Below, in pieces: positions 6,942 through 57,881 of a DNA stretch of 64,000 nt (positions are counted from its first letter, which is position 1; each line of letters starts with the position of its first letter). The DNA lies in IMG/VR virus record IMGVR_UViG_3300050821_003228, positions 1 through 64,000 of that record. One strand, written 5' to 3'. The position numbers were made by a program, and so were the translations under genes. Origin of the DNA: a virus. The notes beneath the pieces are model-generated. The model was not told where the DNA came from. It searched no databases and saw only the letters and a program-made list of their open reading frames with translations.

Positions 6942-7017
6942 GCCGGAATAGTTCAATTGCATAGAACAAAGATTTCCTAAATCTTAGATTCGGATTGGAG
7001 TTCCGATTCTGGCACCA
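6942..7017 (+). tRNA. tRNA-Arg(CCT)
   Basis: Acceptor GCCGGAA/TTCTGGC, anticodon AAGAT-TTCCTAA-ATCTT, T arm TCGGA/TCCGA, CCA encoded. Its 3' part overlaps the end of a gene on the opposite strand. Confidence 0.85.
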
Positions 7018-7385: not shown

Positions 7386-7433
7386 CTTTATCCCATTTCT
7401 GTTTTCTAATATGGCCCGGCCCGATTTGTAAAC

Positions 7434-7471
7434 AAAAAAATGCCTCTCTTTCTGTTTCCAAGTAGAGAGGC
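7434..7471 (-). terminator. rho-independent terminator (minus strand)
   Basis: GCCTCTCT (7442-7449) / AGAGAGGC (7464-7471) 8-bp stem; on the minus strand the hairpin is followed by ATTTTTTT. It would end transcripts coming from the 8.2-kb promoter. Confidence 0.75.
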
Positions 7472-7634
7472 GAACTCAGTCCAACCGGAAGCTTACGCCC
7501 CTGCGGCTGCGGACATAGCCAATACATTCGTATTTGCTTTTATTGTTTATATGTTTATTTAACATCGTCCATACTACGATGACACGCAAGTTAAAAATTA
7601 TTCTGATCGCAATCGAAGCCGTTACACGCCCTCA

Positions 7635-7709
7635 ATAAATGATAAACTCGGGTCCAGACCTACATACTAACCTCAGCTAATACAGTCTTAGAGAACATTT
7701 ATCATTTAT
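7635..7709. repeat. 12-bp inverted repeat spanning 75 nt
   Basis: ATAAATGATAAA (7635-7646) and its exact complement TTTATCATTTAT (7698-7709) flank 51 bases. The right arm ends where the minus-strand tRNA-like CCA begins. Confidence 0.4.
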
Positions 7710-7743
7710 GGTGGACGTGACCGGAGTCGAACCGGTTTCTTAC
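7709..7743 (-). pseudogene. tRNA remnant on the minus strand
   Basis: Reading minus: ACCGG-TTCGACT-CCGGT, then CACGTCC-A-CCA, a perfect T arm plus acceptor 3' strand and CCA. I could not find the matching 5' acceptor strand or anticodon arm within 100 bases, so this is probably a decayed tRNA. Confidence 0.4.
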
Positions 7744-7903
7744 AATAGAACAACTAACCTTCAACGTGCATACTCTTTTGGTGGACATGGTAAAGGTTCC
7801 CGACCAATACTCATTAATAAATTATTAACATCAGCAAGTACAGTTATATACTTATTTACACGCAATTTCATCATAACTATTGTCTCTAGGTTTACGACAA
7901 TAA

Positions 7904-8356: not shown

Positions 8357-10824
8357 TAGACCTCCACGTTATAATCTGTCTCCATGACAAGCTTTTTAAA
8401 CTTCCGAGCAGCGGCTTCTTTAATGCATTGACTGATCAACTTTCCCATTTCTTCACCATGCCGCTTTGGAACCTTAATCAACAACTCATCATGAACCATT
8501 TTAATCAACTGTGCTTTATATTCCGGCAAACGGTGCCACAATGTTGCCATTGCAATTTTAATAATTGTGGCGTTCGTGCTTTGAATCGGGTGGTTCTTAC
8601 CTGCCCTCTCAATGCTTCCAGACATAGCTTTGAAGGCGTTACCAACTTCAAAATCAGTCGGCTTCCTGTGAGTCAATATCCACTTCTCGGAGTCAACATC
8701 AGATAGCCCACCTTCCGGCTTACGTCCCGTTTCAATGATAAAATCGCTGATATTCTTATCAGCAATCTTCTTGTCAAATAGAAGTTTTTCTTTCCTGTCT
8801 TCCTTCGCTTTATAGAGTGCCCGTTCCCAAGTCGGCTCTGGAAAGAGACGGCGACGGCCATACATATCAAACGACTTCTTTAACATCTTCGCTGACTTAC
8901 CAGATGCTTCTAAATAGGTCCAGAGGATCGGAAAACTCTGCCGATGCTTCTCTAGAATTTCCTTCGCCCGAGATAACGGTTTTTTCAACTGAGTAGCGAG
9001 ATTAGACGGCCCCCCACCATAAGGAATCAGGAAGTTCGGAACCTTCGTTTCATCACGAAGTTCCTTATGCTTAGGACAATTACATTTATATCTCTGTGGT
9101 TCTCCATCCTCTTTTAACTTGAAATAAGCACAATCATCTAACGCGAGAGTCGGCCATTCATCAGGATATTGAATCTCTGTACAAACCGCATGTAAATCTT
9201 CTCCACGATTAAAAGCATCAATCCAAACCGGTTCACCCGACAATTCGGCAAGAATACGAAGTTCAGCCCCACTCATATCGGCCTTTACATAAACCATTTC
9301 CTCCCCATCTTCATCAGGACCAACTATAAAGCAGGAACGAATTTCTTTCTCAGTTTTGATATTTTGCCCATTTGGATGTGAACTGCTTGAGCGGCCCGTT
9401 TCTGCTTCATACTGATTATACTGTGAATGTAATTTCCCATCGCCCGGATGTAGCCACCCCTCTTCTTTACAAGGATGAGTAGTCCACGTTTGTGTCCATG
9501 CCATACCATAAGTATTAATTTCTTTCGATAATTCACGATACTTCTGGATCAGTTTGATAACCGGGAATTGAGAGAACTCCTGAAGCGTATCATCGCCAGT
9601 GTCTTTCAACTTCGCTAACGTCTTATTCATCTGCCCGAGTGCTTCTATCAACTGCACGCCGGAATCGTAATTTATTAACGCCTCACCTTCACACTTATCA
9701 CTCAACTTTTTAATCTCAGAATACTTCCTACGAAGTGCGTAATGCTTCTCTTTCAGTAATTCTTTCTGATGTTTTCTCCCTTCCTCTAATCTGACTTGTT
9801 CCTCACGAAGTAACTGCTTCAGTGTTAAGTCTTTTTCTTTCCTGATTTGTGCCCGAAGATTGACTTCTTCATCTGTTACAATATTCAAACTCTTCCACTT
9901 CTTTTCAGCTTCATCAAGTTGCTCTTGTGTGATCGTTTCTTTCTTAGAACCAACAATCGGCAAGAAATGACGATCTAATTCATCAAGTGTATTTTTCAAG
10001 TCTTGTTTTCGGGCATCAATATTCTTCGTCCACTTCTCTTTATCAATATGCTCCCCATTGATATGCATGTCTACAAATGCGCCGATAGCGTTGTTCTCAA
10101 TCTCGGCTATTTCACGAAGATCATCACCAAAGAGATACTTCGGAAGATGATCTAATTGCTTCGTCATCTTGCCTGATAGAATAATATTCTGCATCGCTCT
10201 GATAGCAAGCGGAAGTCTTGTATCTAACGCGGCATATTCAATCTGCTCTTGTGTCAATGGACCAGTCAAATTGAATGACATCTGTAGCTCTTTATTAATC
10301 TGAACACCGAAATAGCGGGCCATCATGTTTTCCATATCATAGAATTCATAATGTTTCAGACTATGATCCCCGGCCCAAATACATCGCTCAACTAATGAAC
10401 AATCGAAGAATTTCCACGGACGTAACCCGAAATTCCAGCGCGAAGTCATGTACTCGAATGATAAATTTACTCCAACCCACGTAATTTTACCGCCCTCAAG
10501 GTGCGGCTGTAACATATCAAATAGTTTTTTTAATTTAGGCGCTTTATTTAAATTTTTACCAAAATATCCTTGACAATTTTGTAATAAATTTGTATCACCA
10601 TTACAAAGAGAAAGAAAATCTATTACGAATTGTTTATTTTGATTACCAAACTGAAATGTTCTACAATAACGCCAAAAATAATCTTTTGTTGGCAAAGTTT
10701 CACAGTCCCAACCAACATGGGACAAAGATTTTAAAAACGCATCAATTAAATCAAAACCATTCTCATCATTGATTATCACTGCTTGCAAGGGCGGATTCAA
10801 TATTAATGCCTTTGGCTCGTTCAT
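8344..10824 (-). CDS. DNA polymerase, family A, with 3'-5' exonuclease
   Basis: 826 aa. Exonuclease: WDCET (Asp40, Glu42), NLSFEY (120-125, Glu where many have Asp) and YAALD (198-202). Polymerase: motif A DMSGAELR with Asp516, motif B Lys594-x7-Tyr602-Gly603, motif C His778-Asp779-Glu780. An insertion rich in charged helices lies at roughly residues 270-400. This is the phage replicative polymerase, without a 5' nuclease domain. The start is the ATG with GGAGG just upstream; an ATG twelve bases earlier contains that ribosome site. It overlaps the HNH gene end by 59 bases and is probably transcribed from that gene's promoter. Confidence 0.95.
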   Translation of the reverse strand: MNEPKALILNPPLQAVIINDENGFDLIDAFLKSLSHVGWDCETLPTKDYFWRYCRTFQFGNQNKQFVIDFLSLCNGDTNLLQNCQGYFGKNLNKAPKLKKLFDMLQPHLEGGKITWVGVNLSFEYMTSRWNFGLRPWKFFDCSLVERCIWAGDHSLKHYEFYDMENMMARYFGVQINKELQMSFNLTGPLTQEQIEYAALDTRLPLAIRAMQNIILSGKMTKQLDHLPKYLFGDDLREIAEIENNAIGAFVDMHINGEHIDKEKWTKNIDARKQDLKNTLDELDRHFLPIVGSKKETITQEQLDEAEKKWKSLNIVTDEEVNLRAQIRKEKDLTLKQLLREEQVRLEEGRKHQKELLKEKHYALRRKYSEIKKLSDKCEGEALINYDSGVQLIEALGQMNKTLAKLKDTGDDTLQEFSQFPVIKLIQKYRELSKEINTYGMAWTQTWTTHPCKEEGWLHPGDGKLHSQYNQYEAETGRSSSSHPNGQNIKTEKEIRSCFIVGPDEDGEEMVYVKADMSGAELRILAELSGEPVWIDAFNRGEDLHAVCTEIQYPDEWPTLALDDCAYFKLKEDGEPQRYKCNCPKHKELRDETKVPNFLIPYGGGPSNLATQLKKPLSRAKEILEKHRQSFPILWTYLEASGKSAKMLKKSFDMYGRRRLFPEPTWERALYKAKEDRKEKLLFDKKIADKNISDFIIETGRKPEGGLSDVDSEKWILTHRKPTDFEVGNAFKAMSGSIERAGKNHPIQSTNATIIKIAMATLWHRLPEYKAQLIKMVHDELLIKVPKRHGEEMGKLISQCIKEAAARKFKKLVMETDYNVEVYWKK

Positions 10825-11374
10825 TTTCCTCCACATATTTTACAATATTTTTTAACTCTGACAAAGTGCCGTCGCTTTTAATTCTATTGGCTCTCCATGA
10901 TATAATACAAATATTACCTTTAATATATCCCAATTCAGGCACTATTCTATCGATAGATGGCGAATTATTTTGTCGGCCTTTTGTACCAATGATAATAGGA
11001 ATATTTAAAACCGGACAAATAGTGGGAATTACAAAATCATCTTCAGTTAAATTAAAAGATAACTTTAATTTATTCGCCCGCTTTCGTGCATCCCCAAGTA
11101 GACGGGTAGAAATAGTTTTTTCATAATATAATCTATGCTTTTTAACAAGTTTTTCTGCATTTTTAGCAGCATATATTTTAACTTTTTTAATTATTTCTTC
11201 ACGATTTTTTAAATAATATGCTCTCGCATATTCTTTTCGTTCTCGTTTTTTACTCTTACGATAATTTAAATGGCACTCATTACACCAGCACTGTTTTTTC
11301 GATACAGTTGAAGAACACAATGAAAATTGATCTTCAAATTTAACTGCCCCACATTTAGGGCATAATTTAGTCAT
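10766..11374 (-). CDS. HNH-type endonuclease with zinc ribbon, leaderless
   Basis: 202 aa. N-terminal CPKCG and a later CWCNEC form a zinc ribbon; a basic helical middle follows; the C-terminal part has SIDRIVPELGYIKGNICIIS and WRANRIKSD, typical of phage HNH homing-type endonucleases (an S-x-D-R-I-D/V-P core). Free-standing, directly upstream of the DNA polymerase gene, a common location for homing endonucleases. ATG follows the -10 box by six bases. Confidence 0.75.
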   Translation of the reverse strand: MTKLCPKCGAVKFEDQFSLCSSTVSKKQCWCNECHLNYRKSKKRERKEYARAYYLKNREEIIKKVKIYAAKNAEKLVKKHRLYYEKTISTRLLGDARKRANKLKLSFNLTEDDFVIPTICPVLNIPIIIGTKGRQNNSPSIDRIVPELGYIKGNICIISWRANRIKSDGTLSELKNIVKYVEENERAKGINIESALASSDNQ

Positions 11375-11463: not shown

Positions 11464-11880
11464 ATGAACGCTTTTACCGTTATGTTTGACGGCAGTTGTG
11501 CTCAAAATCCGGGCGGTATGGGCGCTTATGGTTATATCGTATACAAGGGCGCTGAAAAGATTCATGAAGGATACGGTAAAATCGGCCAATGGGACACGAT
11601 GACTAACAACTTCGCTGAATTTTATGCCCTCTATAAAGGATTAGAATATCTCTATTCTATCACAACCTTTCCTGTAATCATAGTCATAAAGGGCGATTCA
11701 GACTTAGTGATCAAAATTATGAGCAATAAATGGAAAGCGCGAAGGGATCGGCCATATTACAAAGCCTATGAAGAAGCGGCCAAATATGTCCGATTATTAC
11801 GAAACTCGGGCGGGCATCTGACGTTCAACTGGATACCAAGAGAGATGAATCAAGAATGTGACGACCTGAGTAAACGATAG
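11464..11880 (+). CDS. rnhA: ribonuclease HI, leaderless
   Basis: 138 aa, full RNase H fold: FDGSCAQNPGG (Asp9), NNFAEFYAL (Glu52), GDSDLVI (Asp78) and ECDDLSK near the C-terminus supply the DEDD metal ligands. It degrades RNA in RNA-DNA hybrids, removing primers and possibly host transcripts. A second RNase H gene lies at 13.1 kb. No Shine-Dalgarno sequence; leaderless promoter. Confidence 0.85.
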   Translation: MNAFTVMFDGSCAQNPGGMGAYGYIVYKGAEKIHEGYGKIGQWDTMTNNFAEFYALYKGLEYLYSITTFPVIIVIKGDSDLVIKIMSNKWKARRDRPYYKAYEEAAKYVRLLRNSGGHLTFNWIPREMNQECDDLSKR

Positions 11881-11939
11881 AGACTTTAGACTCTAGTCGA
11901 AAGACTCTTGACAAGTGTTGTATAATTATAATAGTAGTA

Positions 11940-12368
11940 AAATACTGGTAGCTTCCCGGCACTGCGTATACCTTAATTAACGGGCCGATTGTTTGGCCAT
12001 TTTGTAATTGATACCGATAATTATCAAGTAACAGCGTAATCTGTTATCAAAATGGAATGTTAACCTGATGTAATTCCCGGCGATAGATGGAACCTATACT
12101 GAAAGGCATCAGAGGCATCAACTTTATCTCGTATTGTAGCGAGAGAGGAATAGAATATTGCAGGTAGCCAGAACTAACCCATCTGGAACTCAAGCTTGCT
12201 TACCAAGCCAGTGCAGTAATAACTACTTTAGTATCAACATCTTACAAGATATGCTAACGATACTAAAATTAGCTATTATTATTCTAGAATTCAATAATAT
12301 ACAACCAATTATCGAAATAAGACTAGCTTACTAACTTTCAGGTAGGGTTGAGCCGGGTTGTGTTTTTT
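11940..12368 (+). ncRNA. large structured non-coding RNA
   Basis: No coding capacity but dense helices: CCATTTTG (11998-12005) pairs with CAAAATGG and encloses TTGATA/TATCAA and TAACAG/CTGTTA hairpins, a clear three-way junction. TCTCG/CGAGA, CCAG/CTGG, GCTTG/CAAGC and TTTAGTATC/GATACTAAA (nested hairpin inside) follow. CCCGGC (11955-11960, repeated at 12076) can pair with GCCGGG (12352-12357), just before T6 at 12363-12368, a plausible terminator. Size, complexity and a tRNA-rich phage setting recall GOLLD-class RNAs, but I cannot assign it. Confidence 0.6.
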
Positions 12369-12488
12369 AATATGTAATAAATACACTAATGTTTACTAAA
12401 CAGTAATAGCTAGTCAATTTGTTTACTTTATAGTAACTATTAAATATTTATTTTCTCTTTGTTTTCAATGGTTTATACTGTTTTGCTA
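12369..12488. other. AT-rich spacer
   Basis: Contains AGTAATAGCTAGTC near 12402-12415, which can pair with GACTAGCTTACT near 12331, and small TTTACT/AGTAA hairpins. May be a 3' extension of the preceding RNA; no coding signal. Confidence 0.3.
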
Positions 12489-12517
12489 TTGACATTTGTA
12501 TAAACAGGGTGTATAAT
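12489..12517 (+). promoter_or_regulatory. consensus promoter of the virion operon
   Basis: TTGACA (12489-12494), 17-bp spacer, TATAAT (12512-12517). Start near 12524, about 210 bases upstream of the first gene. Confidence 0.85.
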
Positions 12518-12523
12518 TTTATT

Positions 12524-12735
12524 ATAGGGTTAAGTAATAGCCCTAACGATAATAGGGGTGGGCCTCCTCCGGGTCAGCTAAATACTGACTTCCTGCCCCT
12601 TCTTTTAGTGGGGTTGCGTATTTATTACGTCCATTCTTAATAGAGCTTAGCTCCGCATCCCACTATTTTAATTGTTACAATTTGGAGGGAGACTAGCTCC
12701 GTGAAAATCGGAGCGTTTTGTTTTTAGGAGGAGAT
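12524..12735 (+). promoter_or_regulatory. structured leader with attenuator-like terminator
   Basis: Contains AGGG/CCCT, GTCAG/CTGAC inside AGGGG/CCCCT, AGTGGG/CCCACT and GAGC/GCTC helices, and ends with a terminator directly before the ribosome site. CTCCTCC (12564-12570) is a perfect complement of the Shine-Dalgarno GGAGGAG (12727-12733). The terminator 5' arm GCTCCG occurs twice (12650-12655 and 12696-12701), so exclusive pairings are possible. It looks like a cis-acting antitermination or attenuation element. Confidence 0.6.
12696..12725 (+). terminator. intrinsic terminator in the operon leader
   Basis: GCTCCG / CGGAGC stem with loop TGAAAAT, then GTTTTGTTTTT, one base before the ribosome site of the first gene. 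Confidence 0.75.
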
Positions 12736-13071
12736 ATGGGTATTTATCAAATAGATAACCAAGAAGTAACTGATGTTAAATCAGTAAGTTATATGGATCG
12801 GGATGAACAGTTAGAACTTCCTTTTCCACCCCCGGCGCAAGTAAATCCGAAAGAAAGGGTTGAAAGTCCTCGGGAGAAGATGTTGCGTGAAAAGCAAGAG
12901 CAAGAAGAGTTGTTCCGTCAATTTAGGACTGTTCTTCAAGGTCGAGATGTCGCAACGGAACATAAGCAACAAGTCTTTATCACAGTCTTGAATAACTTTA
13001 AAAACGGGAATCCAGCGATTTCAAATCTTTCTCGTTCCTTCCTTCTTGAGTTTCTATTGCGTGGTTTATAA
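12736..13071 (+). CDS. hypothetical protein, first gene of the virion operon
   Basis: 111 aa, acidic N-terminus, proline stretch (LPFPPPAQ) and a charged helix (SPREKMLREKQEQEELF). AGGAGGAG ends three bases before ATG and fixes the start; an upstream TTG in frame lies in the terminator. The end overlaps the RNase H gene. Not recognised. Confidence 0.65.
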   Translation: MGIYQIDNQEVTDVKSVSYMDRDEQLELPFPPPAQVNPKERVESPREKMLREKQEQEELFRQFRTVLQGRDVATEHKQQVFITVLNNFKNGNPAISNLSRSFLLEFLLRGL

Positions 13072-13456
13072 ACTTTATACCGATGGCGCGGTCACTCGTA
13101 ATCCCGGTGGGACTGCCTCATATGGTTTCGTTCTTTTTCTTGATGATCAAGAAATTAGCTTTGGGTATGGCATTATTGGTTCTAGTGCGAAAATGAATAA
13201 TGTACTCGCAGAATATTATGCCATTTCTCAAGGGTTAGCGGACTTTACCCGACATTGGGATAAGCCGAAGAGTCAGTTGTATATTTACAACGATTCAAAA
13301 TACGTTGTTAGCCAAGTATGGAAAGATCGAATAGTTGGCTTTCAATTGCAACAATTGCAACAACATCTTGACGTTAAAGTAGCATGGATTCCTCGAATAC
13401 AAAATATTCGGGCCGATGATCTGGCGAAACGTTTAAGATCGCCTGAAATTGCCTAG
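13061..13456 (+). CDS. second RNase H-like protein
   Basis: 131 aa from GTG; TTG at 13046 is an alternative. YTDGAVTRNPGG, NNVLAEYYAIS, YNDSKYVV and RADDLAK match the four metal-ligand motifs of RNase HI. It differs clearly from the first RNase H in the middle and C-terminal parts, so the two are divergent paralogues or separate acquisitions. Its place at the head of the virion operon is unusual. Confidence 0.75.
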   Translation: MVYKLYTDGAVTRNPGGTASYGFVLFLDDQEISFGYGIIGSSAKMNNVLAEYYAISQGLADFTRHWDKPKSQLYIYNDSKYVVSQVWKDRIVGFQLQQLQQHLDVKVAWIPRIQNIRADDLAKRLRSPEIA

Positions 13457-57804: not shown

Positions 57805-57881
57805 ATGCCGTTGGCGAAGAGGTCAAACGCGGAAAGCTACAACCTTTCTAATCAGGGGTTCGACTCCCTTACGGCATTCCA
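57805..57881 (+). tRNA. tRNA-Cys(ACA)
   Basis: Acceptor ATGCCGT/ACGGCAT, T73 (Cys identity), anticodon GAAAG-CTACAAC-CTTTC, T arm AGGGG/CCCTT, CCA encoded. The anticodon is ACA where bacteria use GCA. Confidence 0.75.

What the first reader, a model, noticed from the sequence alone, without database searches (positions are those of the whole stretch)
11940..12368. Ornate non-coding RNA upstream of the virion operon
About 430 nt with a three-way junction, several hairpins, long-range CCCGGC/GCCGGG pairing and a U run at the end. Large ornate RNAs such as GOLLD are known from tRNA-bearing phages; whether this is one of them or new cannot be told by eye.
Basis: partly seen in the sequence, partly recalled or inferred. 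Interest (0 to 1): 0.75.

Follow-up and report, generated by a model that had tools for sequence, protein, structure and literature searches.

The report
New large phage RNA family
Next to the structural genes of a soil-bacterium phage lies the gene for a large folded RNA that belongs to no catalogued family but recurs, with matching base-pair changes, in many related phages and in a few bacterial genomes; what it does is unknown, but a cultured phage carries it, so it can be tested.

Summary
The RNA is real and is not GOLLD or any other Rfam family. Window 11940-12368 is non-coding, has its own sigma70-like promoter, and lies between an RNase H gene and the virion operon. Its folding energy is no better than chance (z -0.66), so comparative evidence decides. 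Relatives at the same place in phage contigs, and in the cultured Acidobacteriota phage Tunturi_3, show one modular RNA superfamily. One module (beta) covaries strongly (27 double-change cells against 6.9 in shuffles) and occurs once per phage. Beta also occurs in a few Acidobacteriota and Planctomycetota genomes. The window carries the alpha form without beta; its three-way junction and three further helices recur, with changed bases, in L066, L073 and L077. The CCCGGC/GCCGGG long-range pair is not supported.

Just downstream, after a perfect sigma70 promoter, lies a second new element: a hairpin showing CUCCUCC as a bulge between two stacked stems, in 17 of 18 relatives, with strong covariation. 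It begins the virion transcript.

Most likely the large RNA acts in trans and the small hairpin in cis on the late operon. Function is inferred, not shown. Tunturi_3 makes both testable.

The parts
11897..11926 (+). P1: sigma70-like promoter (TCGAAA-18-TATAAT; overlapping TTGACA at 11908) of the large RNA
   Evidence: 10/12 matches; across relatives 10 of 17 loci have a site of at least 10/12 in the 180 nt upstream of the module, 0.45 expected
11940..12368 (+). large structured non-coding RNA; ends approximate (5' end inferred from P1, 3' end from the conserved tail)
   Evidence: no ORF of 60 aa or more, no Rfam match, modules shared with relatives
11949..11992 (+). alpha module TAGCTTCCCGGCACTGCG..AATTAACGGGCCG; helix 11956-11960/11984-11988
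   Evidence: 9 sequences, 23 invariant columns; 93.3% of cells paired, 2 of 5 pairs with double changes, modest covariation
11997..12055 (+). three-way junction (outer helix 11997-12004/12048-12055; hairpins 12008-12027 and 12030-12045 with CGTAAT loop)
   Evidence: MFE of window, L073 and L077 each give it; L066 by inspection
12065..12112 (+). helix CTGATG/CATCAG enclosing the motif GATGGAACCTATAC (12086-12099)
   Evidence: same helix from different bases in L066, L073, L077; motif seen in L066, L071, L077
12168..12186 (+). delta hairpin CCAG-AACTAACCCAT-CTGG
12327..12346 (+). 3' tail hairpin CTTAC..GTAGG followed by G..GTGT
   Evidence: extended, base-changed versions in L066, L073, L077
12489..12517 (+). 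P2: perfect sigma70 promoter TTGACA-17-TATAAT of the virion operon
   Evidence: 12/12
12555..12599 (+). gamma element: hairpin with CCUCCUCC (12563-12570) as an 8-nt bulge between two stacked stems
   Evidence: 17 of 18 relatives; covariation 14 double-change cells against 4.4 shuffled; no Rfam match; one copy in G000
12696..12714 (+). terminator-like hairpin followed by GTTTTGTTTTT, between gamma and the first gene
   Evidence: terminator-like in 6 of 18 relatives, 0.26 expected
12726..12738 (+). Shine-Dalgarno AGGAGGAG and ATG of the first ORF after gamma
   Evidence: sequence
11464..11880 (+). RNase H-like gene, constant upstream neighbour
   Evidence: homologues; the Tunturi_3 homologue is annotated Rnase H

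Best explanation
A new family of large structured phage RNA. SHOWN: it is conserved and structured, non-coding, one copy per phage, and in most relatives preceded by its own sigma70-like promoter. INFERRED: it is transcribed during infection from P1 as a stand-alone RNA of about 430 nt and works in trans as a folded scaffold (RNA particle or RNP), as GOLLD and ROOL are thought to. The main reason is that the genes next to it differ between phages, prophages and other elements while the RNA stays. SHOWN for its neighbour: after a separate promoter-like site (P2), at the head of the virion operon, lies a covarying hairpin that displays CUCCUCC. INFERRED: that hairpin is transcribed first from P2 and acts in cis at the start of the late operon, most likely helping polymerase past the terminator-like hairpin that often follows.
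For: Covariation of the beta module: 13 pairs, 8 with double changes, 27 cells against 6.9 shuffled, at most 8 in any slid register. The model finds 3 of 3 members left out of it (L069 43.6, L074 51.0, L082 41.3 bits). It has exactly one match in each of 18 records, all of which I chose because they hold alpha or beta. Alpha links the window to beta-bearing members: the alpha search pattern did not include AATTAACGGGCC, yet every true new hit has it. Window helices recur with other bases in L066, L073 and L077. P1 at 10 of 17 loci, 0.45 expected. Unannotated copy in cultured phage Tunturi_3 at 93287-93382, gamma at 93714-93753. For gamma.
Against: No expression data. The beta model does not hit the window (best 4.0 bits) nor its genome, so the window's tie to the wide family rests on alpha, position, tail and its own type-B helices (4 sequences, arms chosen by me). 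Alpha covariation is modest (23 of 500 shuffles reach it). In several members the RNA runs straight into a Shine-Dalgarno and ORF (L012, L082, L097, L105), which would also fit a cis-acting leader. Neighbours are constant in the 18 syntenic phages.
Confidence: 0.5

Rival explanations
1. The large RNA is a cis-acting 5' leader (riboswitch-like or antiterminator) of the transcription unit that follows.
For: Fixed place upstream of the virion operon in the 18 syntenic phages; in L012, L082, L097 and L105 the conserved tail runs into SD plus start codon.
Against: Downstream gene differs (HNH, ERF in L105, ParB-like in L136, ArdC in G189); in the window a new perfect promoter intervenes before the operon; no terminator is called at its end.
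Confidence: 0.27
2. The RNA is the guide or scaffold of a small HNH nuclease, a HEARO/OMEGA-like or homing module.
For: Five homologous HNH proteins sit next to it in 5 of 18 phages, directly after it in L002, L073, L077.
Against: Absent from most members including the window; before the RNA in L066 and L071; no HEARO match. Free-standing homing genes beside a conserved target explain it more simply.
Confidence: 0.06
3. It is a diverged GOLLD or ROOL.
For: Phage with many tRNA genes (27 tRNAs), large ornate RNA.
Against: No match even at E up to 10; much shorter; own conserved modules.
Confidence: 0.03
4. The RNA serves or counters host restriction/defence as cargo of mobile elements.
For: In 3 of 3 Planctomycetota genomes found by the model beyond the centre genome it lies 0.25-3.4 kb from a type I restriction gene; ArdC beside it in G189; AbiEii about 4.5 kb away in G248.
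Against: Small numbers, noticed after the fact; mobile islands collect such genes anyway; no such neighbours were noticed beside the RNA in the window phage.
Confidence: 0.1
5. Chance folding of an AT-rich intergenic stretch.
For: z -0.66.
Against: Conserved modules and covariation.
Confidence: 0.04

Closest known systems
GOLLD RNA
   Same: Large structured non-coding RNA of phages and prophages, unknown function, less conserved 5' part (passages of PMC12286853)
   Different: No Rfam match; 429 nt instead of often over 800; different conserved motifs; own promoter before a virion operon
ROOL RNA
   Same: Phage/prophage ornate RNA, abundant, no known partner (PMC12286853 passages)
   Different: No Rfam match; different sequence and architecture
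HK022 put RNA (compare with gamma)
   Same: Promoter-proximal structured leader in front of phage genes that are preceded by terminators (PMC9378689 passages)
   Different: put is about 70 nt with two stem-loops at early promoters; gamma is one hairpin of about 45 nt with a CUCCUCC bulge at the virion operon
lambda late control region (Q, pR', tR')
   Same: Promoter, then terminator, then late genes (recalled; PMC6606751 abstract start only)
   Different: lambda uses a DNA site and protein Q; here a covarying RNA hairpin
HEARO (OMEGA RNA of IscB/IsrB-like nucleases)
   Same: RNA beside an HNH gene in some members
   Different: HNH gene is optional and on either side; no HEARO match

Membership tests
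GOLLD | matches the Rfam covariance model | tested here: not met
   no hit at gathering score over the window or at E up to 10 over 11881-12740; none in L019, L002 or 14 further loci
GOLLD | often over 800 nt, near tRNA islands | tested here: inconclusive
   about 430 nt; nearest tRNA ends at 7017, 4.9 kb away
GOLLD / ROOL | assembles into RNA nanocages | not testable with these tools
   needs cryo-EM or native gel
ROOL | matches the Rfam covariance model | tested here: not met
HEARO | matches the Rfam model and precedes an HNH-bearing ORF | tested here: not met
   no match; in the window no HNH follows, judged by eye from the ORFs
self-splicing intron | matches group I or II intron models (that Rfam holds them is recalled) and interrupts a gene | tested here: not met
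   no match; intergenic with its own promoter-like site
put-like antiterminator (for gamma) | two stem-loops of about 70 nt close to the promoter | tested here: not met
   one interrupted hairpin
put-like antiterminator (for gamma) | makes RNA polymerase read through terminators | not testable with these tools
   needs in vitro transcription or a reporter

The most novel reading that the evidence does not exclude
The large RNA is the first described member of a mobile RNA superfamily shared by phages, prophages, a conjugative-type element and restriction islands of Acidobacteriota and Planctomycetota. It acts in trans in the conflict with host restriction. In these phages it is paired with a second new RNA device that displays an anti-Shine-Dalgarno-like CUCCUCC bulge at the start of the virion transcript and gates late gene expression.
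Probability: 0.1. Interest if true: 0.92.

Novelty: new variant of a known kind. Interest (0 to 1): 0.72.

Why it matters
Large ornate phage RNAs are few, and those known (GOLLD, ROOL) have no established function. This is another such family with no Rfam counterpart. It has a modular build, clear covariation, a wide but sparse spread over phages and mobile elements of two little-studied phyla, and a copy in a cultured, complete phage (Tunturi_3), so expression, knockout and structure are testable now. The adjoining CUCCUCC-bulge hairpin is a second new RNA element and offers a tractable model of late-gene control in phages whose regulation is unknown.

Tried and rejected
Energy-based evidence: rejected, z -0.66. 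Direct similarity: blastn of the window region in phages gave only matches of 38-48 nt at 80-85% identity in six records; L068 and L105 RNAs gave none in phages, and L105 none in plasmids. First pattern scan TTCTGC..GCAGTTT: 43 stretches, the family ones being only copies of L002, L013 and L019; the rest look like chance by eye. Alpha pattern in genome contigs: 0. Beta pattern in genome contigs: 50 stretches, only 4 with the expected 3' strand within 110 nt; the other 46 were set aside as chance.

Idea that the large RNA pairs with the gamma bulge: rejected, longest run 4.76 on average against 5.05 in shuffles, 17 loci. Idea that it is a translated leader: rejected. Beta in the window: not found. 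Gamma in 396 Acidobacteriota genomes: none at E up to 1e-4, under strict filters and without a positive control. L076 does not fold as gamma in my test. The gamma model missed L077, L097, L107 and L076 and gave one unrelated weak hit (L084, E 0.11). G415 (30.6 bits) lacks the 3' beta strand and is probably a false or broken copy.

Full report
WHAT IS THERE. The window is bases 1-64000 of a 97,817-base IMG/VR virus record. It has 27 tRNA genes and a permuted tmRNA. Between the RNase H-like ORF 11464-11880 and the first ORF after P2 (12718-13071; ATG at 12736) lie about 840 bases without an ORF of 60 aa or more (longest frame inside the RNA 58 aa). The stretch 11940-12368 folds with -96.7 kcal/mol, z -0.66, 28 of 100 shuffles as good. 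Energy therefore does not show that it is an RNA. Rfam 15 gives nothing at gathering scores here and only two implausible matches at E 1.6 and 6.9 in 11881-12740.

FINDING RELATIVES. DNA search in 50,697 phage records found nothing useful. Protein neighbours did better. RNase H gave L002 (L003 and L004 carry the same DNA). An alignment of two DNA polymerases gave L011-L020, and an alignment of six RNase H sequences (A2) gave L066-L089. tblastn of the polymerase in the phage collection found two cultured relatives, Tunturiibacter phages Tunturi_3 (42.4% over 99%) and Tunturi_4; the terminase is 52.9% identical to that of Tunturi_3. Hosts of both are Tunturiibacter, Acidobacteriota (records; paper PMC11924767: abstract start and found passages seen; 'ncRNA', 'non-coding', 'tmRNA' occur 0 times in its main text). 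In Tunturi_3 the stretch between RNase H and ORF140 is unannotated.

THE FAMILY. Beta module: a hairpin CTG..CAG, then CCGGG-CA-ACG ... CGT-CCCGG enclosing a hairpin such as GCAGG-TAGTCGAT-CCTGC. On A4 (17 sequences): 93.2% of cells paired, 8 of 13 pairs with double changes, 27 such cells against 6.9 +/- 2.1 shuffled, none of 500 shuffles as high; slid registers give at most 8. The outer helix exists as CCGGG/CCCGG, CCTGG/CCAGG, CTAGG/CCTAG, CTGAG/CTCAG and, outside A4, CCTCG/CGAGG and CTGGG/CCCAG. Model R1 finds 20 loci above 39 bits among 49 sources, including the three family members not used to build it, and one copy in each of 18 records, all chosen because they carry alpha or beta. It was found in 5 of 396 Acidobacteriota and 4 of 392 Planctomycetota genomes; both counts include the centre genome, which was chosen as a carrier, and one Acidobacteriota hit (G415) is doubtful.

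Alpha module: TAGCTTCNNGGCACWGC...AACGGGCC. The pattern scan used only the first half. Of 11 stretches, L097, L100, L104 (the same RNA), L102, L105 and L107 are new and have the second half; L099, L101 and L106 are already known relatives; L098 and L103 are chance. L097, L105, L107 and G021 carry alpha followed by beta, which joins the two forms. Alpha stem: 93.3% paired, 2 of 5 pairs with double changes, 23 of 500 shuffles as high: conserved in sequence, modest as covariation.

THE WINDOW RNA. It has alpha but not beta (best R1 score 4.0 bits; none in G000). With L066, L073 and L077 it forms a second type. All four show, in the same order, alpha, a three-way junction whose second hairpin has a GTAA-containing loop, a helix that in the window, L066 and L077 encloses GATGGAACCTAT-, a delta hairpin and a 3' tail hairpin. 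The arms pair at 147 of 152 positions within a sequence and 190 of 407 between sequences. I chose the arms, so the first number is biased; the junction, however, comes out of separate MFE folds of the window, L073 and L077. The MFE of L066 differs and its junction is by inspection. L071 shares ATGGAACCTATACGG but was not modelled.

Counting the 18 syntenic phages that I aligned for gamma: 13 have beta by R1 (L002, L012, L013, L019, L064, L068, L069, L074, L076, L078, L082, L097, L107), 4 are alpha without beta (window, L066, L073, L077), and L071 rests on the motif alone. L069 and L095 are one contig.

PROMOTERS. Upstream of the RNA module 10 of 17 loci have a site of at least 10/12, 0.45 expected from mononucleotide shuffles; in seven of them (L064, L068, L069, L074, L076, L078, L082) it ends 58-67 nt before the module. 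L066, L073, L077, L097, L107 and L012 have none there, and L002 has one of 9/12.

GAMMA. After P2 (12/12 in the window) comes a 45-nt hairpin. In 17 of 18 phages the MFE leaves CUCCUCC unpaired as a 7-9 nt bulge on the 5' strand between two stems with nothing opposite; mean z -3.6 over all 18; outer pairs 1-5 are standard in 17 of 17 with up to five pair types. These pairs come from folding each sequence, so they lean towards pairing. On A8 (7 sequences) there are 14 double-change cells against 4.4 shuffled, none of 500 as high. R2 built from those 7 finds 7 further members (L095, L068, L012, L064, L074, L073, L071) at E 0.003 to 0.09 and misses L076, L077, L097, L107; one copy in G000 and Tunturi_3. 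A sigma70 site of at least 10/12 precedes 8 of 18 (0.52 expected) and a strict terminator-like hairpin follows in 6 of 18 (0.26 expected). CUCCUCC resembles the anti-Shine-Dalgarno end of 16S rRNA (recalled). Every ordinary SD is partly complementary to it, so complementarity to the first SD (AGGAGGAG in the window) proves nothing.

NEIGHBOURS ELSEWHERE. ERF gene after the RNA in L105; ParB-like genes beside it in L110, L136 and G801; large terminase 0.8 kb downstream in L150; integrases near it in G006 and G248, ArdC and a TraG-like ATPase in G189. HsdR lies about 0.25 kb away in G749 and about 2 kb away in G568, and HsdM/HsdS about 3.4 kb away in G801. Each of these three genomes has only one or two HsdR and two HsdM matches, so the closeness is striking, but I noticed it before testing it. 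Five homologous HNH proteins lie beside the RNA in L002, L066, L071, L073 and L077, on either side.

INTERPRETATION. Varying neighbours, one copy and an own promoter favour a trans-acting RNA, as for GOLLD and ROOL, whose functions are also unknown (PMC12286853, found passages only). That it is made, its ends, partners and role are inferred. Gamma's place at the head of the virion operon, often before a terminator-like hairpin, is most simply explained as a cis-acting antitermination or attenuation element, in the manner of put RNA (PMC9378689, found passages only). Literature: searches showed no paper on this RNA; from the other listed papers I saw only listings, abstract starts and, for PMC2864571, found passages. 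I do not claim that nothing is in print beyond those searches.

Noticed in passing
window 7402-7801 (-): Phage-encoded tmRNA of the permuted type (Rfam RF04321, 65.1 bits; ARAGORN tag ANTNVLAMSAAAGA) beside a cluster of tRNA genes.
   Followed up: no
window 12546-12618 and 17 relatives: Covarying hairpin with an invariant CUCCUCC bulge at the 5' end of the virion operon.
   Followed up: yes
window 11464-11880 and 13046-13456: Two RNase H-like genes flank the RNA region; they are 35% identical to each other.
   Followed up: no
L002, L066, L071, L073, L077: Homologous small HNH proteins sit directly before or after the RNA; in L066 the HNH frame overlaps the alpha module.
   Followed up: partly
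L176, L177, L178 (G801, G568, G749): The RNA lies close to type I restriction genes in three Planctomycetota genomes.
   Followed up: partly
G021: L102 12744-12795 and L167 963-1029: Two alpha modules in one 47.8-kb phage contig, one with beta and one apparently without.
   Followed up: no
17 large RNAs: The longest stretch complementary to CCUCCUCC (SD-like) is on average slightly shorter than in shuffles, as if ribosome binding were avoided.
   Followed up: no
window 10766-11374 (-): Small ORF whose start-distal end overlaps the start of the polA ORF; looks like a homing endonuclease by eye, not tested.
   Followed up: no
window 57805-57881: tRNA-Cys called with anticodon ACA instead of the usual GCA.
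   Followed up: no
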